A stretch of 37,445 nucleotides of DNA, from contig JAACJW010000009.1 in assembly GCA_021378525.1 (NCBI GenBank), positions 1 through 37,445 on the forward strand. Reading direction: 5' to 3'. Source of the stretch: Ureaplasma sp. Hg2. GTDB taxonomy: Bacteria; Bacillota_I; Bacilli_A; Mycoplasmatales; Mycoplasmoidaceae. The position numbers and the translations under genes were made by a program. Shown here piece after piece: positions 10,176-37,445 of the stretch. Numbering within the stretch: the first letter of the stretch is position 1; every line of letters begins with the position of its first letter. Below the pieces are notes generated by a model. It was not told the DNA's origin, did not search any database, and worked only from the letters and a program-made list of their open reading frames with translations.

Positions 10176-10197
10176 TTACCTGGATAACTAATTTTTT
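10171..10197. terminator. Bidirectional terminator between rnhC and the LRR surface gene
   Basis: ATTAGTTA / TAACTAAT stem with a CCTGGA loop, T6 on the plus side and T5 on the minus side. It overlaps the stop codons of both converging genes. Confidence 0.8.
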
Positions 10198-12799
10198 AAT
10201 AACCCTCATCACTGTCGACCACAGTTTCATTTTTCTTTGCTAATCGTTCCCGCTTTTTAGCGATTCGTCATAAACTAACACAAACTAATGCCACAACTAA
10301 TAAGGAAACTAAAATTGACAAAACAATGATGGTGATATGGGTATAACGATTTGAAGCATCAGAGTTATCCTTGTTACCACTAAAATTTCAATTTTGTTTA
10401 GGATTAAGTTGATAATCGCCAAGTTTTCCACCAAGAAAATTATTGCTAACATCAATCACTAAATTATCACTCAAATGATTAATTGAATCAATTGGTAATG
10501 ATTTTAATTTGTTATTATTTAATTTTAAACTTACTAATTTATGATTATTATTAAAAACATCATCTGGTAAATTGGGAAGTTGATTAAAGCTCATGTTTAA
10601 AGTTTTTAGTTCTTTTAAATGATCAAATTGTCGGGGCGAAACTTCTTTAATAACATTATTGCTTAAATCTAAATTTACAATATTAATGTTGTTTTGGAAA
10701 GCGTTAGCATCGATATCGGCAATATGATTATTAGCTAAATTAACGTTCTTTAAATCAACATTATTAATAAAAAGTAAATCTGGAATTGTGCCAACAAGAT
10801 AATTATTGCTCAAATTGATATCAGTTAGTTTTTTTGTATTTTTTAAAAGCTTCACTTCATCGGTAATTGAAATGTAATTATATGATAAATCAAGGGTTTG
10901 AAGTGCACTATCGTTAGCAAACATGATGTTGTTTGCTATATTAATTTCATTATGACTTAAATCTAAATTAACGATGTTGTTGGCATTTAAAATAACCTGA
11001 GGAACTTTTAAAATTAGATCATTATCAAGTAGTAAAGTAATTGGTTTAGGATTGTTACTGTATGTCCAGCTATTATCAAACTTGATGCCATTAACAAGCT
11101 TATCAAGGGTTAAAGTTGTTAAATTTTTAGCCTTACTGAAATTATTAAAGTCAACCTCTAGCAGACTATTATTAGTCTGCATGCTTAAATTTTCTAAACT
11201 TGCAATGTTAACTGCTTTAGGGATATTATTAAAATTATTATTACTTAAATCAATTGTTGTTAGTGTGACGTTGTCAACGAAGCAATCATCCGGAAGCGAT
11301 TTTAGATTTCCATCTAATTTAATATTTGTAAGCTTATCTAGCGAACTAAAAGCATCTTGAGCGATTTTCATTTCATTTTCTGTGCTAATCGTAAGATTAG
11401 TTAAGGTGTCTAATTTTTGAAAAATATTAAGTGATTCTTTAGTTGCGTTAGCAGGATCATACATTGTATCAAAATTTTTCGTTGATAATGTTAACGACGT
11501 TAATTTTGCCATGTCGTCAAAAGCATAAGGAACGGGTGTTGTTGAAGTTTCAAATCCTTTAAATGTTGTTTCAATAGAATGGGTTGATTTGCCTTCGAAG
11601 ATTACATTTACTTTGAAGTTAATTGTGACAATAATTGTTCCTTTTTTATCATCAGTTACTGTTGAAACGCTTGGATCACCAGTTGTAAAAGGATATTTAG
11701 TGTCAATATGAACTCAATTATTAAGGATGTATGAATCTGTAAAACCACTATAATCAGGTAATTGCATTTTATCTTTTGTGCTCGGAAACAATCAATTAAC
11801 AGTATCTGTTGTTGGCGGTGGTGGTGTTGGCGTCTTAAAACCAGACATTAATAAATTAACGTTTTTCACATAACTACTTTGCGATTTGGTTTCATTGTAG
11901 GTTGCTGTTAAAATATGAGTTTTAGCCTTATAAGTTAATGTTGTAATATTTTCTTCATTTGTGAAATCAACATATTTTTTTGTTTTTAGTTCTTGAATTA
12001 CGGCAGCTAATGACGCGGGATTAGTAAGGATAGCGTTAAAATCAGCTTCACTGATTTGATTTATGTTTGTTCCAATGACAAGTGTTGGCGCAGAATTATA
12101 TCCCGGCGGTCGCAAGAATTCATCTAAATTTGTTACATTTAAGGTGAGGGACGTTAAATTTTGAAATGGTTTGTCTAAAAAACTTTCAGGGTAGGAAACA
12201 GCCGGACTTGGGGGCGCATATTCAAAAGATGTTGAATCTAAATTTAATGTTAAAGTTTGAAGGTTAGTATTAGTTATTAAAAAGGACGGATCAATCTTAA
12301 TATCATCACCATTAGTACTTGTGATTGATAAAGTTGTCAACTTTTTATTACTAGCTAAAAAGACATCGGTTTTTATTTTTTGGCCTTCAATGTCGGTAAC
12401 ATTACCACTGATAGTTAATGTATCTAAATTAATTAAATCCTTTAAAATATCGGTTGTTAAATCAATTATACTATCGCTATCAACATCTAATTTTGTAACC
12501 AACTTTAAATCAGCTGAATTAACAATCGAATCTAATGTAACATCAGCTTGTGAAGCTTTTTGTTGATTATTAATACTATTAATAATTGCTGTTCCAAATG
12601 CGACACCATAGATATCTCGATAGCTATTGGTAATTACTTGTAATGTAGAAACTTCCTGGTTTATAACTTTTTGATGCGACGACACCGTTAAAATTGCTTG
12701 ATTATCACTTTTTAAAGTGGCACTCACAACAATTGTGGTTGTGGTTAAAATCAAACTAAAACTTAATAAATAACTAATGACTTTTCTTTTACAATTCAT
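10196..12799 (-). CDS. Surface leucine-rich-repeat type-I membrane protein
   Basis: An 867-aa protein laid out as follows. A signal peptide (KVISYLLSFSLILTTTTIVV, no lipobox Cys). An N-terminal block with irregular LRR-like lines (LTTLSITS, LTSLTLNVT). A Lipoprotein_17-like domain at about 244-321, a proline linker (KTPTPPPPTT), and a second such domain at about 336-425 ending TTFKGF. Classical extracellular LRRs at about 430-795 (LxxLDLSxNxI, LPDDVFNNNHKLVSLKLNNNKL). One transmembrane helix at 822-844, and a basic cytosolic tail ending SDEGY. The body would face outside and could bind a host or partner protein. TGA codons at 336, 804 and 844 are Trp. The start has no ribosome-binding site and lies 6 bases after a TATAAT box, so the mRNA may be leaderless. 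The ligand is unknown. Confidence 0.85.
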
Positions 12800-13017: not shown

Positions 13018-14391
13018 CTAATCAATAACTTCTTCTAATCTAATTAAAATATTAATTTCATCAAGGGCATTTTGTGCTATTTCGGTTCCCCGGTGTTTTT
13101 CTTCAATTACTCTTAAACTAGTGATTTTTTGAGAAAGCTTATTTAATTGATTGGTATCTATGGTTAACCTTGTTAAGTTTATTAAATTTTCGATCTCCAA
13201 TGGGAACTCCTTTAGAAGGTTTTCAGATAAAGATAATTCTGTTAAATTTAATAAATTTTCAATTCCTTGGGGCAACACAGTTAATTGGTTTTGATCCAAA
13301 GCTAGAATTCTCAAATTTATTAAGTCACCAATTTCCTCGGGGATGGAGCTTAATTGGTTCTGCTGCAAGAATAGTTTTGCTAGCTTTATTAACTTTCCGA
13401 TTTCCTTAGGAATCGTTATCAATTGGTTCTCATTTAACACAAGATCCGTTAGATTTATTAAGTTTTCGATTTCTTTAGGGATTGTAGTTAATTGGTTTTG
13501 ATGCGAAGATAGAATTCTTAAATTTACTAGCTTTCCAATTTCCTGGGGAATCGTAATTAATTGGTTTTGATGTAAAAACAGATGTGTTAGATTTATTAAA
13601 TTTCCGATTTCTTTAGGGATGTTAGTTAATTGGTTTTCAGCTAAAAATAGAGTATTTAAATTTATTAAATTCTCAATTTCCTTAGGAATGGAGCTAATTT
13701 GATTTTCAGATAAAGATAATTCTGTTAAATTTATTAAGTTAAAAAATTCCTTAGGAATGGTCGTTAATTTGTTTTTGGTCAAACCCAAAATTGTTAAATT
13801 TACTAAATTTCCAATTTCCTTAGGGATTGAGCTGATTTGGTTTTGTTCGAATGATAGGGCTGTTAAATTTATTAAATTACCGATTTCTTTTGGAATGACT
13901 GTCAATTGGTTTTGTTCTAAAACTAGGGTCGTTAAATTTATTAAATTTCCAACTTCTTCAGGAATGATGGTTAATTGGTTCTCATACAATGTTAAATCGT
14001 TTAAGTTTACTAAATTTCCGATTTCTTTGGGGATGGATGTTAATTCGTTTTGATGCAAAGCCAGTTTTGTCAAATTCATTAAATTAGCAATCCCTTTGGG
14101 AATCGTAGTTAATTGGTTTTCTTGCAATAATAGACCTGTTAGATTTACTAGATTTTCGATTTCTTTTGGGATTGATGTTAATTGATTTTTAGCTAAGGAT
14201 AAAACTATTAAATTGGTTAACTTTCCAATCTCTTTAGGAATTTCAGTCAAACCATTATTATCAAGCGATAAAACAATAATTTGATTTGATTTCGCTCATT
14301 TTTTTAATAATTTACGTAACGCTTTAAACGAATCATCAATTTTAATTTCTTCGTTTTCTTTACTATCATTTAATCGATATATTATTTTCAT
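13018..14391 (-). CDS. Cytosolic leucine-rich-repeat protein with 23-residue repeats
   Basis: A 457-aa protein made almost wholly of LRRs. After about 60 residues of charged leader (MKIIYRLNDSKENEEIKIDD, then QIIVLSLDNNGL) come sixteen consecutive repeats of exactly 23 residues with consensus LTxIPKEIGNLINLTxLxLxxNQ, then a helical C-terminal cap (about 42 residues ending RLEEVID). There is no signal peptide or membrane segment, so it should be cytosolic unless exported in another way. The pattern is the IP-x-EIG-x-L class seen in Leptospira and in Ras-group LRR proteins. Start by AGGGTG. A TGA Trp at about 14299 joins the leader to the repeats. It is separated from the surface LRR gene by 218 AT-rich bases. 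Partner unknown. Confidence 0.85.
13142..14257 (-). repeat. 69-bp tandem repeat array encoding the LRRs
   Basis: Sixteen 69-bp units with no length variation. Many share AATTTCC(G/T)ATTTC(C/T)TTAGG and TTAATTGGTTTT blocks in plus orientation. Near-identity of neighbouring units suggests expansion by recombination and possible copy-number variation between strains. Confidence 0.8.
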
Positions 14392-14554: not shown

Positions 14555-14580
14555 TATGACTCCATTTATCTGGAGTCATA
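14555..14580 (-). terminator. Terminator of the obg-nadE-pheST operon
   Basis: TATGACTCCA / TGGAGTCATA, a 10-bp perfect stem with a 6-base loop. On the minus strand it is followed by TTTTTT. It lies 38 bases beyond the pheT stop. Confidence 0.85.
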
Positions 14581-14617: not shown

Positions 14618-16954
14618 CTATTCTGAATAGTTTTTAATGATCTTAGCAACCTTGCTAGAATAATTATCGATTTCATTAACATTGAATGTTTTTTGATAAG
14701 ATTGAATATTATAACTTATTGTGTAGGTTATATCGTCAACGTTAGCATAACTATCCTTCACAACAACATCTTCAATGTTTGGAAGTAACTGTAATTCATT
14801 TAACACTTTAATAATTTTTGTTTCACGTTTTAAGGTGATGTTAACATCACGACTAATTGCTGAAACATTAGCTATTTTTTGATATTGAATCGCTTCTTTT
14901 TTAGCGCCTGCAAACAATAAATCTAAATTAAGCGTAATCCCAAAAACAGGTGTTTCTAGATCATATTTTTTTAATTGAGTACGACGAATTTGACCGACAT
15001 AACCAATTGTTTCTTTTTTATCATTAACAATTATTAACGCATTTTCAGGATAATAATTAGGGCATGTTTTAAAAGTTCGATAGTTATATTTAACATTAAA
15101 CTTAGCTAGCAAACTCGTTGTTAAAGCTTTGGCTGTCATTAAATCTAATGGAACATTAGTTTGATTTAAAGGTGATTGATAAAGCGGCACACTCAATAAG
15201 ATTGTTAAATTTTTAAAGCTTTGGGTCTTATCACTCAACTGTTGCATTTCAAAAATATTATGAAGCGGACGTTTCCGTGCTCTGTTATATTTTAAAACAT
15301 CTAATAAACTCGTAAATAAATTAGTTCTTAAATATTCGCGTTGTTTACTAATCGCATTGATTACTTGAAATGACGAATCTAATTTAAAGAAGTTAAATAA
15401 ATCATTATTAGCTTTTGAAGTTAGATTATAAGTCTTTGTTTCATAACAACCATAATCAACTAAAAAGTTTCTAATTGTTTTTAGATCATTGTAACGTTGA
15501 TAATTATTATTGATAATCACGTTAGCAGTGATGGGTTGCACGATTAATTTATTAACATCTTCTAGTTTCATAATTTCTTCATAAACATCTTGGGCATTAA
15601 TAATGTCCAAACGCATTGGATGAGCAGTTGCTGAGGTGGTATTAAAGTCTAAGTGTAAAAGCTTGCTTTTATGTTTAAGGCTCGCTAAATGCTTCTTAAT
15701 CCCTAAAAAATTATTTAGTTCATTAATCGAAACACTAATTGGTTTCATTTGAGGGATTTTAATGTCATTTAAAACTTTAATGCTTTTCACATAAGGTTGC
15801 ATTGTTTCCAACAATTGGTTAATCGCTAACTTAGTAACTCATAAACTTAATGGTTTACTAAATCTAACCCCAGCTGTGGTATTTAATTTTAACCGTTCGA
15901 CAGTGGCCGCGATCCGACGTGGTTTGAAGTTAGCGACTTCAGCATAAATTGCTTTTGTGCTCGCATCAACCATCGTATTGGCAGCGCCGATAACGCCTGC
16001 TAAAGCGATTGTTTTTTGATTATCACAAATAATTAAATCATCAGTTTTAATTTGATATTGATGATTATCTAAACCGACCATTATTTCATCTTTTGTAGCG
16101 TTCTTAACAGTGATGTTTCCTACCACTTTAGCCTGGTCAAAAAAATGTAATGGGTTAGCTGTTAATAATGTAACGTAGTTTGCTAAATCAACAACATTGT
16201 CTTGTGGTTTAATATTACAATTCATTAATTCACCTTTTAATACTCAAGGTGTATCTTGATAATTGATTTGGTCTAGTTTAACAATGCTATAGGCATTAAC
16301 ATCATCACTTTTAAGATTAACTTTGAAACTATTGCTTTTTGAGATTTTAAAATCAAAGTCGCGGGGCAAATTAAATTCCCATCCAAAATGAATCGCGATT
16401 TCATTAGCAAATTCAATCAAACCATTTAGTTCGTTCCGATTACTTGGGATTGCAACATCATATACTTTATCTTCTAAACCTAAATGTTTTAAAGGATTGT
16501 TATCATCAATTTTAGCATCATCAAGAAAAATAATCTGATTCTTGTCTCATTCACTAATAACCGCTTGGTTATGTGGCGTCAGTTCATGGTAAGCACACAT
16601 CATCCCGTGGCTTGTAACCCCACGCATGTCACGGTTAGCAATAACCATATCATTAATCATTTTAACGCCCTCACGCGCCACAATGACGTTGTGGTTCGGA
16701 CTTAATTGATCAGCACTACAAATAATTTCGGTTGTTTTGTTGTTAACAAGCACCTGACAAATATTTAAGGTATCAGCGTTGGGATGTTTTTTAACTTCAA
16801 CAAGGCGACCGACAACTAAATCTGGTGTATATGGATGTTCAATGATTTGTTCAACTTCCATTCCGACAGCGTTACACGCTTCAATAAAGCGAGCATCATT
16901 AATATTAATAAATTTTGGTAATAATTTAACGATTAAACTTTTAGTAATTAACAT
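14618..16954 (-). CDS. pheT: Phenylalanine-tRNA ligase beta subunit
   Basis: With PheS forms the alpha2-beta2 enzyme that charges tRNA-Phe. The 778-aa product has the N-terminal tRNA-binding OB domain (GVMEVEQII-type region, LVVGRLVEVKKHPNADTLNICQV), then IICSADQLSPNHNVIVAREG, the B3/B4 editing region, a B5 domain (MKPISVSINELNNFLGI), the catalytic-like fold (AISKQREYLRTNLFTSLLDVLKYN) and the C-terminal anticodon-binding FDX-ACB domain (ISRDVNITLKRETKIIKV). Four or more TGA Trp codons interrupt it under the standard code. The start follows TAGGAG, 9 bases after the pheS stop; pheS and pheT are one transcript. Confidence 0.96.
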
Positions 16955-16963
16955 AATATACTC

Positions 16964-17974
16964 CTATCTAAATTGTTTGTTGAATTTGAAATCATTACTA
17001 TATAAATCACGAATGTCGTTGATTCCGTGTTTTAGCATGACAAGCCGTTCGATTCCAATCCCGGCGGCAATTCCATTTTGGGTTTTTTTAATGTTGGCTG
17101 ATTTAATAACGTTAGGGTGTAACATTCCCGCGCCAAGGATTTCGATTCAACCAGAGTGTTTACAAATGTTACAACCTTTAGCGTTACATTTAAAACAAGT
17201 AACGTCGACTTCAAAACTAGGTTCGGTAAAGGGAAAATAACTTAAGCGATAACGGGTTTTAGTATTGCTACCAAAAATATGAATCATTAAATTATCGATT
17301 AATCATTTCAGGTTGGCTAAACTAATATCTTCCTTTAATCACACAAAATCAATTTGGGTGAATTGGTGGCTGTGCGTCGCATCATCTTCATCCTTACGAT
17401 AAACATTTCCATAACTTAAAATTCGAATATCATTATCTTTATTGTTAAATAACTTTTCAGCTGTCGTAACTGTACAATGCGTTCTTAACATTGACTCCTT
17501 AGAAAAAAATAAGGAATCATGCATGTTACGCGCTGGATGATCAAGTGGAATGTTTAGGTGTTCGAAATTAAATTTATCTAAAACAACTTCCGCCCCATCA
17601 ATCACATCAAAATTTAAGCGCATAAAGAAATCGATTACATCATCAATCATTTGATTGATTAGATGGTGGCGCCCGTTCTCTAAAAATGTCGCTGGTAAAG
17701 AATTATCAACTAATAATTTTTGATCAAGTTCATCACTCGCTTGTTCAAAAATTTCTTTTCTTTGATTTAACGCTAGTTCAATCTTAGTTTTGAATTCATT
17801 TAATTCTTTTCCTAAAATTTTCTTTTGATCAACGTCACATGATTTAAGTTTGCCATACAACGGCATTAAGTGCTCTTTATTAAAAATATTTCTAATTTCA
17901 ATCGCATGTTTAATATCACGAGCGTCTGCTAATTTTTTAATTAAATCAGCAATTAAAACATCATAATTATTCAT
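16964..17974 (-). CDS. pheS: Phenylalanine-tRNA ligase alpha subunit
   Basis: The 336-aa catalytic subunit. It has an N-terminal coiled-coil for tRNA binding (residues 1-85) and then class II synthetase motifs: [20 protein letters not shown]-type motif ([15 protein letters not shown]), motif 2 [22 protein letters not shown], and motif 3 [26 protein letters not shown] zinc-like cysteine set [16 protein letters not shown] is visible near residue 265, as in many bacterial PheS. The start codon overlaps the end of nadE by 8 bases, giving translational coupling. Confidence 0.96.
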
Positions 17975-19172
17975 GTTTTTTGCCCTCTTCTTTATAATTC
18001 TTTATTTTTAAATTTTCTTTGTTTTTAAGATTTTCTTTGTTTTTAAGATTTTCTTCATTTGTTTTATTTCTAAATTTACGGAACAATAATTTATCTTGTA
18101 ACTCCAACCTAAATTGAAGGTTGTTACTCATATAAATTGTGACATAAATTGAAGTCGCTAAAATGACAAAAAGCATGGAAGCTGTTAAGCCAATCCCCAT
18201 TGCTCCTAAGTTGAAATCATTACTAAAGATTTTAGAATCAAAATGATAATAGTTAACGGTGTAAGTAATCCCAACAGCCAAGGTTGCAATTGTTAAGATC
18301 GTTCATATTAAAGCAAACCAAATTAAAACTGGTACATTAAAACGACTTTTAATTCCGGTGTTTAAATAATTCATAAAAAAATTAGGGTTAATTGTTTCGT
18401 GTTCCTTGTGCTTATTAGCGTGGTGCATTTTTTCAATTTTAACTTTTTCAGCTGTTGAAATTGTTTTGTTCAATAAATAATCATCTAATGTTTTATAACT
18501 AAAACCTAAATCAGCTTCGTCAGTTTGGTCTTCATAAAGACTAGCGCTTGGGGGGCGGTTAATGATTATATCGGGAATTTCAAGGTATTTAGCAATCATG
18601 TAAACGTGCTTTTTAATTAATCCAATTAATAAAGCAAGATCACTAGCGCCATCACCGTGTTTTGTGTAATAACCAACGTAATATTCATTATAGTTAGTTG
18701 TTCCTAAAACAATTTGCCCTTTTGCTTGCGCCATTGTATAAAGGGCAGTCATCCGGATTCGTGGTTTAATATTAGCAACAACATCATTATAATTACTAAG
18801 TGTTTGATCAAGTTTTAAAAGTTTAATATATTCGCCACTAATTTGGTCAAATTTAAAATCAACGATTTCAAGATCGAATTTTTTTTGCATGGCATCAATA
18901 CATTCGTAATCCAATTTGCTATTGCCAATATCCAAGGAATAACAAGATACCTTTTTAGCGCCTAGACTTCTGATTGCAATCGCTGCCACAACTGCTGAAT
19001 CAATCCCACCACTTAAACCAATTGATACGCCATTCAAATTTTGTGATTTAACATATTGATTTAATCAAGCTTCTAAGTATTTAACATAAGCAGCAATATC
19101 ATTGTTTGATACTTCGTGATGCCACCCTAACGTTTGAAAATTATTGGGGTTTAAAGTTAAATTATGTTTCAT
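17967..19172 (-). CDS. nadE: NAD synthetase fused to a two-helix membrane extension
   Basis: Residues 1 to about 265 are an ammonia-dependent NAD synthetase that converts deamido-NAD to NAD: P-loop GLSGGIDS (52-59), LGTTNYNEYYVGYYTKHGDG, then PPSASLYEDQTDEADLGFSY and a final HHANKHKEHE. The frame does not stop there. A TGA Trp at residue 290 leads into a hydrophobic helix (about 279-303), a short loop, a second helix (about 322-348) and a Lys/Glu-rich tail with ENLKNK repeats, total 401 aa against about 250 for other NadE. The ATG lies 2 bases after the obg stop; the end overlaps pheS. The extension should tether NAD synthesis to the membrane. A missing stop by sequencing error is the alternative. 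Confidence 0.88.
18013..18060 (-). repeat. 18-bp tandem repeat in the nadE tail
   Basis: TTTTCTTTGTTTTTAAGA occurs twice exactly and once partly, in frame, coding for ENLKNK-type hexapeptides. Units are 18 bases, so slippage would change tail length without breaking the frame. Confidence 0.75.
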
Positions 19173-23716: not shown

Positions 23717-24781
23717 TTATAATTTTTTAAATTTTAACGGTGGTCGAACTTGATTTGAAACCATCGGTTTGTTCGGTTGGCGAACTTGATTTGAAACCAT
23801 TGGTCTGTTCGGTTGTCGCATTTGATTTGAACCCATTGGTTTATTAAGTGGCCGCTTATTCAAGCTAGGTCGAGCATTAGCTTTATTACCTCTTAACTCG
23901 TTTGTTGGTTTCATACTTGCTGGTATATTATTACGTAATTTTTCACTATATTCATTATAGCGATTTAAGTACATATTAATTTTGTGAGTGTAGTTAAAAA
24001 CATTTTCAACGTTAGGACTATGCCCTGCTAAGGGGACGATGCAAGATTCTGCACCTGGAATTTTATTAGTTAAATTTGTTTTTACATCATTAACTTTTAA
24101 TAAACCATCTGAATCACCAAAAATAAGTAATGTTGGTTTAGTAATTGCGTGATATGCATTTTCAAATAAATTAACTATTTCGCTATTGCTTAAGAAACTT
24201 AACGTTAAATCTAAAGCATCGTGACTTTTAATGTATCTTGACAAACCTAATCTTGCTGCAATTTTTCCATTAACTGTTTTTGCAAGCTTGTCATAGCCAT
24301 TAATTTTTAAACGTTGTAATTGCGCATAATTTTCATCTGAACCAGGAATGATGATTTGATGGATCTGATTTGCATCTTTAATAAAAGATTGATCAATCGG
24401 ACTAATAAAAATGTTGCAGCCAACTACTTCGGGAATTAATTGATTCACAAGAGCGGCAACTGCTGCGCCCATTCCGTGGCCCATTAAAATAACGTCTTTT
24501 AGTTCACGTCGGGTGATGAAGTTGGCAACGATATTTGCATAATGGACAATCGTTAGTTCATTCGGGTTATATCAAGGTGACCCAGCAACACCAGGATAGT
24601 TTAAGGTAAAATAATCGTACGAAAGACATTTCTCTGCAAAATTATCATGTTGGTGATAGTCTTCACCGAAATCTGGAAAGTAAAAAATTGGACCTTTGGG
24701 GTAGATTAAAGTATTAAAACGTCGTTCAGCGTATTGTGAATAAAATTCAATCCCTGAAATATCTATATCTAAGAAATTCAT
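23717..24781 (-). CDS. Alpha/beta-hydrolase-fold protein lacking the nucleophile serine
   Basis: A 354-aa protein. The fold is recognisable: IYFPDFGEDYHQHDNFAEK and LNYPGVAGSPW (oxyanion and NYPG-type loop), the nucleophile elbow VILMGHGMGAAVA (about residues 97-109), TLLIFGDSDGLL (Asp223/225) and IVPLAGHSPNVEN (His254). The elbow reads G-H-G-M-G, so the usual G-H-S-M-G serine is glycine at residue 103, while Asp and His remain. A basic, low-complexity tail from about residue 290 has three 12-residue repeats of PM-x-SNQ-x-RQPNK type. Start (MNFLDIDISG) by AAGGAG 7 bases upstream; an ATG eight codons earlier has none. One TGA Trp joins the two halves. It may be non-catalytic or use another nucleophile. 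Confidence 0.8.
23745..23846 (-). repeat. 36-bp tandem repeat in the hydrolase-like gene
   Basis: Units CGAACTTGATTTGAAACCAT... at 23745, 23781 and 23817 (the last diverged and partial), encoding 12-residue Pro/Asn/Gln/Arg repeats at the protein's C-terminus. Confidence 0.8.
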
Positions 24782-24946
24782 ATGTTGCTCCTTTATAAAA
24801 AACATCTTTATATTAATTATACATTAGTTAAGATTAAATAACGCGAGAAACCCACATAACTTTCATATCGCCTAATAATATTGCTTGAAATAAATTGTTA
24901 TGTTGTTCGATCGTCAATAAAACATTCTTACAACGACTTATTTGAT

Positions 24947-32989: not shown

Positions 32990-35900
32990 CTAGTTATTTG
33001 CTAAGGCTTTAGGGATATCTAATTTCTTTAAACTAATAAAGGTTGATATAAAAGTTACCGAGAAAATTAACATCGTAATTCCAGTTGTGGCAAAGTATGA
33101 CCATCACGGAATTTGTGGTGCAATGATGACACTCATGAAATCAAAGACACCAGCCGAATAAAGACTCATAATACCCAAACTCAATGGGAGTGTGATTATC
33201 AATGAAGTTATTAATATCAAGAAGTAGATAAACAAGAACGATAAGGTGTTACTTCCGTCTGGTACTCCCAGTATTTTCATCATCGACAACAATCGTCTTG
33301 ATTCAATAATTAACATTGATGACAAGAGAATGATGATAATTAAAATTGTTGGCAAGAGAATAGCCATCGCAGTCGTTCCCATAATCAATACCGTATCATC
33401 TAATGTCCCATATAGCATTTGCGATGATAACTCTTGGTCCATCCCACTGAAGGCCGGTACGACAGCTTGTGAGCCGAAGGTGCTAATAAAGGTACTTAAA
33501 AATTCTTCAATTAATTTATCATTAATATTATGGGGCACATTCCCATCGTTTATGACAGGCTTTAACTTTGTATCCCACCCAATCGTTTTATTGATATCAG
33601 ATCAATAATTTTCAATCATATAATAGGTGTCTGTTGTGTAATCAATCCCTTCTTTAAATTGGCTATCCATCGGATACAATCCCGAAGGACTATATAATAT
33701 GGCAGTATTGCTTAGGAATTTAGCCTTTGAGGTTTTTGAGAAAAACCCATTAAACGAAGTTTGTGATTCGTTGTTATTAACAGGGAAGCCAAGTTCGTTA
33801 TTAGCGTTTGCTTGACTAATATAAAATTGATATTCTGATTTACTAGAAGTAATTCCAACAACTTCATATTTTTGAACGTTATTTTCTTCTTCATTATTAA
33901 TTTCTTTAAGTTTTCGATCATAACTATTATTAACTTTAAAAGTTAATGTATCACCTTTTTTTAAACCGTAATATTTAGCAACAACTTCATTAATAATAAG
34001 CGGGGTGTTACCTGATGGTAATGTCTTATCTAATAGTGGTTTTAAATCCTTGTTATGTTCATCATATAAGGTCACTAGTTTAGAATTTGGTTTAATTCCG
34101 GTAATCATATAGTTTTTATTGTTTGAATCATTTCCGTTTTGTTTAATCATATCGGCGTCCAAATAGGTGTATGTTTCATCGACCTTGTCTACTGGAATGG
34201 AATTTGTTGTCAATTTATAATCATAATCAGCAATTTCAGGATCACTATATAAGGTAGTAATTAACTTTATATATTGGGTGTTATAATGGATATCAGCCAC
34301 GCTTATATCTAAAGCGTATTTTTCATTAAGCGTTCACTTTTTAGTAGCTTCATCCATTGTATAAAAAGGTTCTTGTTTTAGTGCCCCATCTTTATATCAA
34401 ATAGGTTTATCATGATATTTTTCATATGCGTAATTTAAAAACGACTCGTAAAATTGATCGGTTTTTTGGACGATGCTGGTCGGTAAAAATGTTGTTGCAT
34501 AGTCTCACGGGTTAACCGATATTTCACCAAGAATTGATTTGTACTTCACATTAACATTAGCAAATACTTGCGACAAAACTTTATTCTTAAAGAAATAAGG
34601 TTCTTTAGTTATTTTTTGGATGGAATTTTTATCGGTGAAGTATAAACCGCCTCAATAATCTTCAGTACCGTCTGGTTTTGTAAAGGTCAAATCACTTCGA
34701 CTATATGTTTTGCTACCTTTATATAAATCTTTGTCAGACCCCGGGGTAACCTTTCCGATATCATCAAATGATGTTTCATCATATAAACCACCTTGGGTGG
34801 TTGGACTATATAAATTAATTCCATATTCATAGCCTTTGTTGCGTTCGGTCATTCCTAAAGCATCAGAGAAATTATTCACCGTCCCAAGAATTGTACTCGT
34901 TAAAGTCATAAAAATTGTAATCATTGCGACCAATGTAACAAACCGCGTTATATTACCAAAGGCATATGTAATTTTGAACGTTGTCATTGGATCGAAGACT
35001 CCCATAAATTTATGAGTCTTAATGATTAGTAAATTCATTCTAAATGAGCTATTGCTACTCATCAGTTCAGAAGTTGTATGACGTAATGTTCAATAAACAC
35101 AAATAATTGTTAAGATTGAAAAAACAGCAGCCACACCTAACGGCAAGCCAAAGAACCAGCCTGGCGAGAACACCATTAACGGCGTTGGAATAACTCAATA
35201 ATTTGTAAGCAATGATAATGATGCGGATTGGAGCCCGAAAGCTAGAATATAAGCAAGCACACTACCAATTACACCGGGAATTAAAACATATGGTAACATC
35301 GAAAGTGCAATTTCAATTTTTCTTGATCCGTTGGCCATACTTAAACCAATAATTTTTTTATTGTTTTTAATATGGCTACGAATCATCGTTAAACTGAATA
35401 TGATTGCTAAAACGGCAACGACGCCACCTAAAACTAATGTCGATACAAAAACAATTAATAATAATTGTGGCACAAAATTTAATCTTATTGGAGAGTCGTT
35501 TAATTTATTAGACATATCTGCATTTAAATAAGCAGATTTAATCCCTTCAGTGTAATTCATTTTCTTAGCAGCATCTTCGTTGATTTTATTAATGATTTGT
35601 TGTTTATTAGATTGGCTTAAATTTGCATCTTTAAATTTAGCTACAATATACGATTGAGATGAATTACTAGGATAACTATCCGCAATTTTTTGATATCCAT
35701 TACTATTTAAGTAGATAATAGCAGAATGTTCATTGTCCAATAAAATATCGGTTGAAGAAACCATTGGATGAGCAAAATCAGGGGTAACTCCTGAACCCAT
35801 GATTAAATAATTAATTCCATTGATATTGATTTTATTTTGATCGGGCAAATTAGCCAATCATGTAACAAAATCGGTTTCATCCGCTGGAACATCTTTGGGA

Positions 35901-37445
35901 TTTCTAATATCAAGTTGCAAATCGTAAGGTAGTGCTAGCCCTCTTTGTAATTCATCATTGGCGATCGGTGTTTTATGATTGTCTTTATCGTTCATATAAT
36001 TAATTGAAATGACTGCCTCATTTGCCGTTTTATTGGCAACGGTCATATTCATAGGTGTTCATTGACCATTTTTAATTGTATTTTTAGTAGGCGTATATGT
36101 ACCACCGGCTGAATATTTATATGATTGAATAACATTATATTCAGAATTGTTACTTGTCACTAATTTATTGCGAGTTCAATATTCTTCCAATCAAGTGTTG
36201 TATTTGCTAGCATCAAACGCGGGGTTTGTTTTACCGTTTATTGTTCTTGGAGTAGAAAGATTTTCTAATAACCCATAAAGTTGATCAACATTACCATCTG
36301 CACCACCTGTTGCAGTTCAAGAACTTTCTAAGAGTACCTGAAAATAGTTTGCGTAATCACGATACGTGCCTGTTGAATCTTTATATATCTTGCTTTTATC
36401 TAGCCCTCTTCCCTTAGTTTCGTCACGAGATTTATCTGGTATATTATGATTCGTCGCATCAGAAATAAACATTGAATATCATCAGCTATCAGCTTCATAA
36501 ATAAATTTACCAACTTCTACCTTATTTAATGTTTGAGTTCCTTGTAAATCGTTAAAGGTGTCTTTAACATCGTTTGATTGAGATAAATTTTGTCCATCAT
36601 ATAAAACCAAATCGTTTACATGCTGATTATCTGCAACATTGGGATTTGATTCAACAATTTTATATTTGTTGTTATTGTTGGCATCGTTTAGTTGCAGTGA
36701 ATTAAATTGACGGTAATCAATTGGGAGTTTATTTAAATCGCCGCTAATTTTATAATCATTATCAAATTTTTGGCTATTTTGATTAATCTCCAAATATGCT
36801 TTAACCTCGTTGTTAATATTAGTTGTAATATCATCTTTTGTTGCATTCAAGATTGAAGTTGTGGTTATTCCAGTCGTTGGATCGTCAACGATAAAAGATG
36901 GTATTGTAACAATCTCATCATAATATTTTGCTTTCCCATTTTTTTCATCATTATAGAATTTGTATTCACCTGCTAATTTAGCTTCGTCAACTTTTATTTC
37001 ATATTGGTAAGCTTTAACTTTTTTTGGTTTGGTTTTAGTTAATCAATTAGCAATCAAGTCTTTATACGTACCAGCCAAAGCATAGTTTTGACCTTTTTTA
37101 TCACCCTGATCAACCACTAGTGAACCATCAATGATATTAAAAGCATCGGATTCTCAATTTTTTTTGCTATCAATTTTACCTCCACTATTATTACCAGCAG
37201 CTAAATATGTTGATGTTAAATAATTCATACCGTCATAAGAGGCACCTAAAGCCGTTGAAATCCCTAATAGATTTCCCGTTTTTTCATCAAATACCAAGTT
37301 ATTTGGATTTAAAATTTCTGTTCCTTCAATTGGGGCGGTAATATCGCTGATGTTAATTCCATAAGTTTCAGCTTTCCCACTATTTCTTGATTTTCTTTTC
37401 TTTGGAACTTTCGTTGTTTTATAATAACTATTAATATCAAGGTTT
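32990..37445 (-). CDS. Large FtsX-family ABC transporter permease (5' end off window)
   Basis: At least 1,485 residues, one open frame with TGA as Trp, still open at the right edge, so the start and N-terminus are missing. Visible in N-to-C order: a long extracellular region (37.4-35.6 kb), helices with VFVSTLVLGGVVAVLAIIFSLTMIRSHIKN, IGLSMANGSRKIEIALSMLPYVLIPGVIG and VYWTLRHTTS; a further part with FKITYAFGNITRFVTLVAMITIFM; another large extracellular region (about 34.9-33.6 kb); and a final FtsX core, LLPTILIIIILLSSMLIIESRRLLSMMKILGVPDG, ending KKLDIPKALANN. This is the MacB/lipoprotein-export permease type, duplicated. The cognate ATPase is not seen here. The substrate is unknown. Confidence 0.85.

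What the first reader, a model, noticed from the sequence alone, without database searches (positions are those of the whole stretch)
13018..14391. Cytosolic protein with sixteen LRRs of exactly 23 residues
All sixteen repeats keep 23 residues with a tight consensus LTxIPKEIGNLINLTxL. Such regularity suggests recent expansion of a 69-bp unit. There is no export signal, so an intracellular or non-classically released role is possible. The type is close to that of Leptospira LRR proteins.
Basis: partly seen in the sequence, partly recalled or inferred. Interest (0 to 1): 0.52.

Follow-up and report, generated by a model that had tools for sequence, protein, structure and literature searches.

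The report
Cytosolic 23-residue LRR protein, mollicute genus
A mollicute gene encodes an ordinary bacterial leucine-rich-repeat protein, probably kept inside the cell to bind another protein; its even 23-residue repeats are real but old and held even by selection on the fold, not a recent burst of copying.

Summary
On the minus strand (14391..13018, code 4) lies a 457-aa ORF with 17 consecutive units of exactly 23 residues (16 keep the proline), a non-hydrophobic N-terminus and no TM segment. The "recent expansion" reading fails its own test. Units are 65% identical in DNA on average (maximum 81%), neighbours are no closer than distant units, and fourfold sites are nearly as diverged as between this species and its congener. 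Two cyanobacterial/chlamydial genes with the same repeat type, taken as yardsticks, do show near-identical adjacent units. The repeats are still gene-specific (16 of 17 units have their nearest DNA neighbour in the same gene), so amplification or homogenisation happened, but long ago. The gene is absent from the same pheT-LRR2 interval of the only congener, whose homologue sits beside rpsO. Type and predicted fold match Leptospira LRR proteins best (Z 37-39), but the same type occurs in Nostoc, Vibrio and Neochlamydia. Most likely it is an intracellular, concave-face protein binder from a small, genus-restricted LRR set. It is a new member of a known kind, of low interest.

The parts
13018..14391 (-). 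LRR protein ORF (P0001), 457 aa, code 4 (one TGA=W)
   Evidence: a weak RBS-like GAGGGTG at 14401-14395 (minus strand) was seen by eye
14281..14391 (-). N-terminal cap, residues 1-37: predicted beta-hairpin (2-7, 14-17) and helix (22-33)
   Evidence: AF2 model; profile; leave-one-out support for three of five rows
13108..14280 (-). 17 LRR units of exactly 23 residues (residues 38-428)
13021..13155 (-). C-terminal helical cap, residues 413-457 (predicted helices 413-432 and 437-455); overlaps the last LRR unit
   Evidence: AF2 model; no Pfam match for residues 428-457
14555..14580 (-). intrinsic-terminator-like hairpin between pheT and the LRR gene, suggesting a separate transcript
   Evidence: 10-pair stem with T-run
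10196..12799 (-). neighbouring LRR protein (LRR2), 867 aa, hydrophobic N-terminus (7-29) and C-terminal TM (818-849); flanks the variable site
14618..16954 (-). pheT, other flank of the variable site
   Evidence: TIGR00472 541 bits against cut-off 403

Best explanation
It is an intracellular LRR binding protein of a genus-restricted mollicute LRR set. The conserved 23-residue scaffold stacks into a curved solenoid, closed by a small beta-hairpin/helix N-cap and a helical C-cap (predicted). The exposed residues of the concave beta-strands (unit positions 3, 5, 7), free to vary, form a long binding face for a partner protein in the cytoplasm (inferred). Constant unit length is kept by purifying selection on the solenoid; sequence uniformity within the gene comes from an old amplification or homogenisation. 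The gene set gains, loses or relocates members between species.
For: LRR families and fold. No signal or TM. Scaffold positions are 85% identical between units, while positions 3/5/7 are at random level (0.096 against 0.102; 0.125 against 0.112 in the congener's gene). Old age: fourfold identity 0.443 (random 0.308); adjacent units against reshuffled unit order, p=0.57; pheT, pheS and rnhC between the two species d 1.0-1.4, against about 1.13 within the gene (by hand numbers, same formula). Gene-specific repeats: 16 of 17 (window) and 16 of 16 (L009) units have their nearest DNA neighbour in their own gene, and same-index units are no closer (0.465 against 0.454). Variable siting. Genus restriction of a P0001-like match: 2 of 320 order genomes at E<=1e-15.
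Against: No partner, expression or localisation is known. Leptospira LIC11051 lacks a signal peptide yet is reported extracellular (PMC11629876, passages), so absence of a signal does not prove an intracellular place. Lipoprotein-type LRR proteins in the same genomes suggest that LRRs are also used outside. The AF2 model is single-sequence; only the best of five models is confident (82.4; the others 61.3 to 46.6).
Confidence: 0.6

Rival explanations
1. A non-classically released, host-facing LRR adhesin or effector of a host-associated mollicute, comparable to Leptospira LIC11051.
For: Top NCBIfam profile is LIC_11051 fibronectin-binding protein (191.9 bits). LIC11051 has no signal peptide and is discussed as non-classically secreted (PMC11629876, passages). 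Best folds are Leptospira LRR proteins.
Against: The match is far below the family cut-off of 1000 bits and covers only the LRR part. Host association of this organism is not shown here, and the genome encodes other LRR proteins with lipobox-like signals for the outside.
Confidence: 0.25
2. Recent tandem expansion of a 69-bp unit, with repeat number varying among strains.
For: Units are gene-specific in type. There is residual codon identity above permutation (0.564 against 0.462, 0 of 1000 permutations reach it). Homologues differ in unit number (17, 16 and about 11).
Against: DNA identity mean 0.65 and maximum 0.81, adjacent equal to the mean. In Nostoc and Neochlamydia genes of the same type, units reach 0.97-1.00 and adjacent units are closer than the mean.
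Confidence: 0.07
3. Defence or non-self recognition: a diversified LRR sensor of phage or rival proteins.
For: Concave positions vary freely; the homologous genes sit at different places in the two species.
Against: No PADLOC match at E<=0.01, no effector or NTPase domain among the Pfam matches, and no defence genes recognised next to it (by eye).
Confidence: 0.04

Closest known systems
Leptospira LRR proteins LIC11098, LIC10831, LIC12759 (PDB 4u08, 4u06, 4u09)
   Same: 23-residue LRR with xxIPKEIGxLxNL type consensus; best structural matches, Z 38.8, 37.3 and 37.0 with 41-47% identity
   Different: In the sequence alignments of residues 1-60 to LIC11098, the match starts at about residue 35, and the N-cap with the first strand (residues 1-46) finds no PDB relative at E<1. 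Of the Leptospira set, some are reported with lipoprotein or Sec signals (PMC11674859, passages).
LRR proteins on Nostoc, Vibrio and Neochlamydia plasmids
   Same: Same 23-residue type, 44-49% identity over residues 37-433
   Different: No match to residues 1-36 in the 15 rows listed; the Nostoc and Neochlamydia genes show recent unit duplication
BspA-like TpLRR families of mollicutes such as Ca. Mycoplasma girerdii
   Same: An expanded LRR set in a mollicute (PMC4206474, passages)
   Different: That is the TpLRR class (LRR_5), mostly with C-terminal TM; P0001 gives LRR_8/LRR_14 and no LRR_5 at E<=0.001
SHOC2
   Same: Cytosolic scaffold (recalled) with a similar LRR type; Foldseek rank 5
   Different: Eukaryotic RAS-phosphatase scaffold; 30-37% identity in the rows; no sign of common function

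Membership tests
LRR superfamily (Pfam LRR_8, PF13855) | LxxLxLxxNxL repeats above the Pfam gathering score | tested here: met
   148.6 bits against 27
Leptospira 23-residue LRR proteins (LIC11098 group) | 23-residue units and solenoid fold | tested here: met
   the model is a prediction
Leptospira 23-residue LRR proteins (LIC11098 group) | shared non-LRR N-terminal sequence | tested here: inconclusive
   Sequence match to LIC11098 begins at about residue 35; structural alignment begins at model residue 4-6
LIC_11051 fibronectin-binding protein (NF047464) | score above the curated cut-off of 1000 bits | tested here: not met
   191.9 bits
Type III effectors XopAE, XopAC, XopL | curated cut-offs of 600, 450 and 500 bits | tested here: not met
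   167.7, 163.4 and 126.7 bits
BspA-like TpLRR proteins (LRR_5, PF13306) | LRR_5 match | tested here: not met
   not among the five Pfam matches at E<=0.001
Recently expanded tandem-repeat genes | near-identical neighbouring units | tested here: not met
   maximum 0.81, adjacent 0.65; yardsticks
Recently expanded tandem-repeat genes | repeat number differs among strains | not testable with these tools
   one genome per species is held; no second strain
LRR/PknD kinase genes of Mollicutes-related endobacteria | LRR genes beside multi-copy PknD-type kinases | tested here: inconclusive
   one Pkinase match in each of the 2 genus genomes, on another contig than this gene; genomes 79% and 85% complete

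The most novel reading that the evidence does not exclude
A genus-specific set of cytosolic LRR binders with its own N-terminal cap, whose genes move between housekeeping loci (pheT, rpsO) and are re-homogenised gene by gene while the concave binding face diversifies freely: a small evolving repertoire of intracellular recognition proteins in a genome-reduced bacterium.
Probability: 0.12. Interest if true: 0.5.

Novelty: new member of a known kind. Interest (0 to 1): 0.2.

Why it matters
It corrects a common inference: exact unit length and a tight consensus do not by themselves mean recent repeat expansion. In LRRs the solenoid enforces both, and synonymous sites and adjacency are the test. 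It also adds 23-residue LRR proteins without export signal to a mollicute genus, where the LRR sets met in the passages read (PMC4206474, PMC10507103) were TpLRR or kinase-linked.

Tried and rejected
Rejected: recent expansion. A 138-bp double unit, suggested by TRF: even and odd lags do not differ in a clear way. Mobile-element insertion: no direct or inverted repeats of 12 bp or more within either 256-base flank and no transposase recognised next to the gene; target-site duplications were not tested across the gene. Phage origin: 16 of 50,697 phage records match, all under 60% identity and mostly Listeria and Leptospira. Defence: no PADLOC match. N-cap relatives: none in Pfam for the window's N-cap, PDB (best E 0.092 for the profile; E 1.5 for the window N-cap) or plasmids.

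Weak points: the N-cap profile A5 was built from the five proteins it finds. Leave-one-out recovers the window (E 1e-7), L009 (4e-14) and L003 (3e-9), but L002 only at decoy level (1e-3) and L004 not at all. Common N-cap descent is therefore supported for three of the five. The decoys in that test include loci picked up by the profile itself. The loose search (E<=0.5) gave matches in 31 of 95 family genomes; all those outside the genus were at E>=0.002, and I treat them as chance. L031 (G001:C1) was judged N-cap-like by eye only. A 39-position profile has little power, so 'genus-restricted' applies to these searches. A metagenome-like assembly can lose genes with identical repeats (L003 breaks off at a contig end inside its repeats), so recent expansions may be under-represented. 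Fourfold distances are near saturation and give only a rough age.

One search read L003 from the wrong base and gave stops; it was not used. Papers: PMC10507103, PMC11674859, PMC4206474, PMC12633904, PMC2946307 and PMC11629876 were seen as passages; Miras et al. 2015 only as cited in them. Searches for mollicute LRR proteins in print; the other paper searches were (listings).

Full report
What is there. The window is contig 46 of a 1.18-Mb assembly in 46 contigs, about 79% complete. The gene needs TGA read as Trp, so the organism is a code-4 mollicute (inference). The minus strand from 14391 to 13018 encodes 457 aa. Residues 38-428 are 17 units of exactly 23 residues without any indel; L4, N9 and L21 are invariant and 16 of 17 units have P15. 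Pfam gives LRR_14, LRR_8, LRR_4 and LRR_1. There is no hydrophobic N-terminus or TM-like stretch. A terminator-like hairpin separates the gene from pheT, so it is probably its own transcript.

Is the regularity recent? No. Units average 65% DNA identity, with a maximum of 81%, and lag 1 (0.655) is no higher than longer lags. Where two units keep the same amino acid, the codon is the same in 56% of cases, against 46% when codons are shuffled within the gene. That is a real residue of common origin, but adjacent units are no more alike than units in shuffled order (0.560 against 0.564, p=0.57). Fourfold sites are identical in 44% of pairs against 31% at random. With the formula this is about 1.13 changes per site (worked by hand), similar to pheT 1.01, pheS 1.32 and rnhC 1.39 between this species and its congener G001; these values are near saturation and rough. 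As yardsticks, a Nostoc gene (23 exact units, adjacent DNA identity 0.87 against mean 0.79, maximum 1.00) and a Neochlamydia gene (9 units, 0.75 against 0.69, maximum 0.97) show what recent unit duplication looks like; a Sulfurovum gene does not. These are two chosen from the 128 plasmid records plus the single locus.

The repeats are nevertheless gene-specific. By DNA, 16 of 17 window units and 16 of 16 units of the G001 homologue L009 have their nearest relative in their own gene. Units of the same index in the two genes are no closer (0.465) than units of different index (0.454). Amplification or homogenisation thus happened separately in each gene, at a time comparable with the split of the two species. 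Constant unit length needs no recent event, since the solenoid demands it.

Family and surroundings. In its own genome P0001 matches seven LRR genes, itself included (8 matches); with the neighbour LRR2 this makes eight. Three of the others show an N-terminal hydrophobic segment followed by a lipobox-like Cys (L028, L029, L025), and LRR2 has N- and C-terminal hydrophobic segments. P0001-like matches at E<=1e-15 occur in 2 of 320 genomes of the order, both in this genus. LRR_8 as a family appears in 6 of 59 relatives, in 3 of 25 genera. In G001, pheT (75% identical) and LRR2 lie side by side with about 100 bp between them and no LRR gene, whereas here the gene fills that interval. The G001 homologue (46% identical) lies beside rpsO, where this genome has a peptide-deformylase-like ORF (named by eye) directly after rpsO. 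The two genes are therefore not at the same locus, and gain, loss or relocation has occurred; which of these is not resolved.

Structure and mechanism. The AF2 model (single sequence; best of five, pLDDT 82.4; others 61.3, 51.9, 46.6, 46.6) shows a beta-hairpin and helix, then the LRR solenoid, then two C-terminal helices. Best matches are Leptospira LIC11098, LIC10831 and LIC12759 (Z 38.8, 37.3, 37.0), ahead of Roco, LGR4 and SHOC2 at about 30-31. Buried scaffold positions are 85% identical between units, while strand-exposed concave positions 3/5/7 are at random level (0.096 against 0.102), and the same holds in L009. This is what a concave binding face under a conserved scaffold looks like (inference from LRR biology). 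Shown: anatomy, class, lack of signal, age pattern, variable siting. Inferred: cytosolic place, protein partner, concave binding. Unknown: the partner.

N-cap. A 39-position profile finds the cap only in this genus at E<=1e-4 (2 of 320 order genomes; 1 of 392 phylum genomes). It was built from those five proteins, and leave-one-out testing supports common descent for three of the five (window, L009, L003), not for L002 or L004. Leptospira, Nostoc, Vibrio and Neochlamydia plasmid hits align only from residue 37 on in the 15 rows listed, and the cap alone finds nothing among plasmids at E<=10.

Against known systems. It is a member of the LRR superfamily and of the 23-residue type solved in Leptospira. 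It is not a member of the LIC_11051, XopAE, XopAC or XopL families by their curated cut-offs, nor of the BspA/TpLRR class known from Ca. M. girerdii (PMC4206474, passages). LRR genes reported in Mollicutes-related endobacteria are linked to PknD kinases (PMC10507103, passages); here each genus genome has one Pkinase match. Leptospira LIC11051 shows that an LRR protein without signal can be found outside the cell (PMC11629876, passages), which keeps the release rival alive at about 0.25.

Verdict. A real, well-described, ordinary LRR gene; the one non-trivial inference, recent expansion, is contradicted by synonymous sites and adjacency.

Noticed in passing
window 10196-12799 (-): Second LRR protein (867 aa, LRR_8 and LRR_5) with hydrophobic N-terminus and C-terminal TM; conserved in place in G001 (57% over residues 424-867).
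   Followed up: partly
L047 (Nostoc sp. ATCC 53789 plasmid pNsp_j): LRR protein with 23 consecutive exact 23-residue units, some identical in DNA, beside an integrase: a real recent expansion of this repeat type.
   Followed up: partly
LR756500.1 (uncultured phage, 462 kb): 28 separate places match this LRR protein: a large phage genome rich in LRR genes.
   Followed up: no
window 17967-19172 (-): NAD-synthetase-like ORF (by eye) continuing into TM-like segments and a NLKNKE repeat (TRF 17998-18055, period 18).
   Followed up: no
window 23717-24805 (-): Alpha/beta hydrolase-like protein with C-terminal 12-residue repeats (TRF 23738-23842, period 36).
   Followed up: no
window 32990-37444 (-): Very large FtsX/MacB-like permease (by eye), open at the window end; a similar one lies near the LRR gene in L024.
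   Followed up: no
L031 2435-3166 (G001:C1): LRR protein with N-terminal TM helices followed by an N-cap-like segment (by eye): possible membrane-anchored version.
   Followed up: no
L022 961-2697 (G000:C39): Signal-bearing protein with long internal repeats on the same contig as an LRR gene.
   Followed up: no
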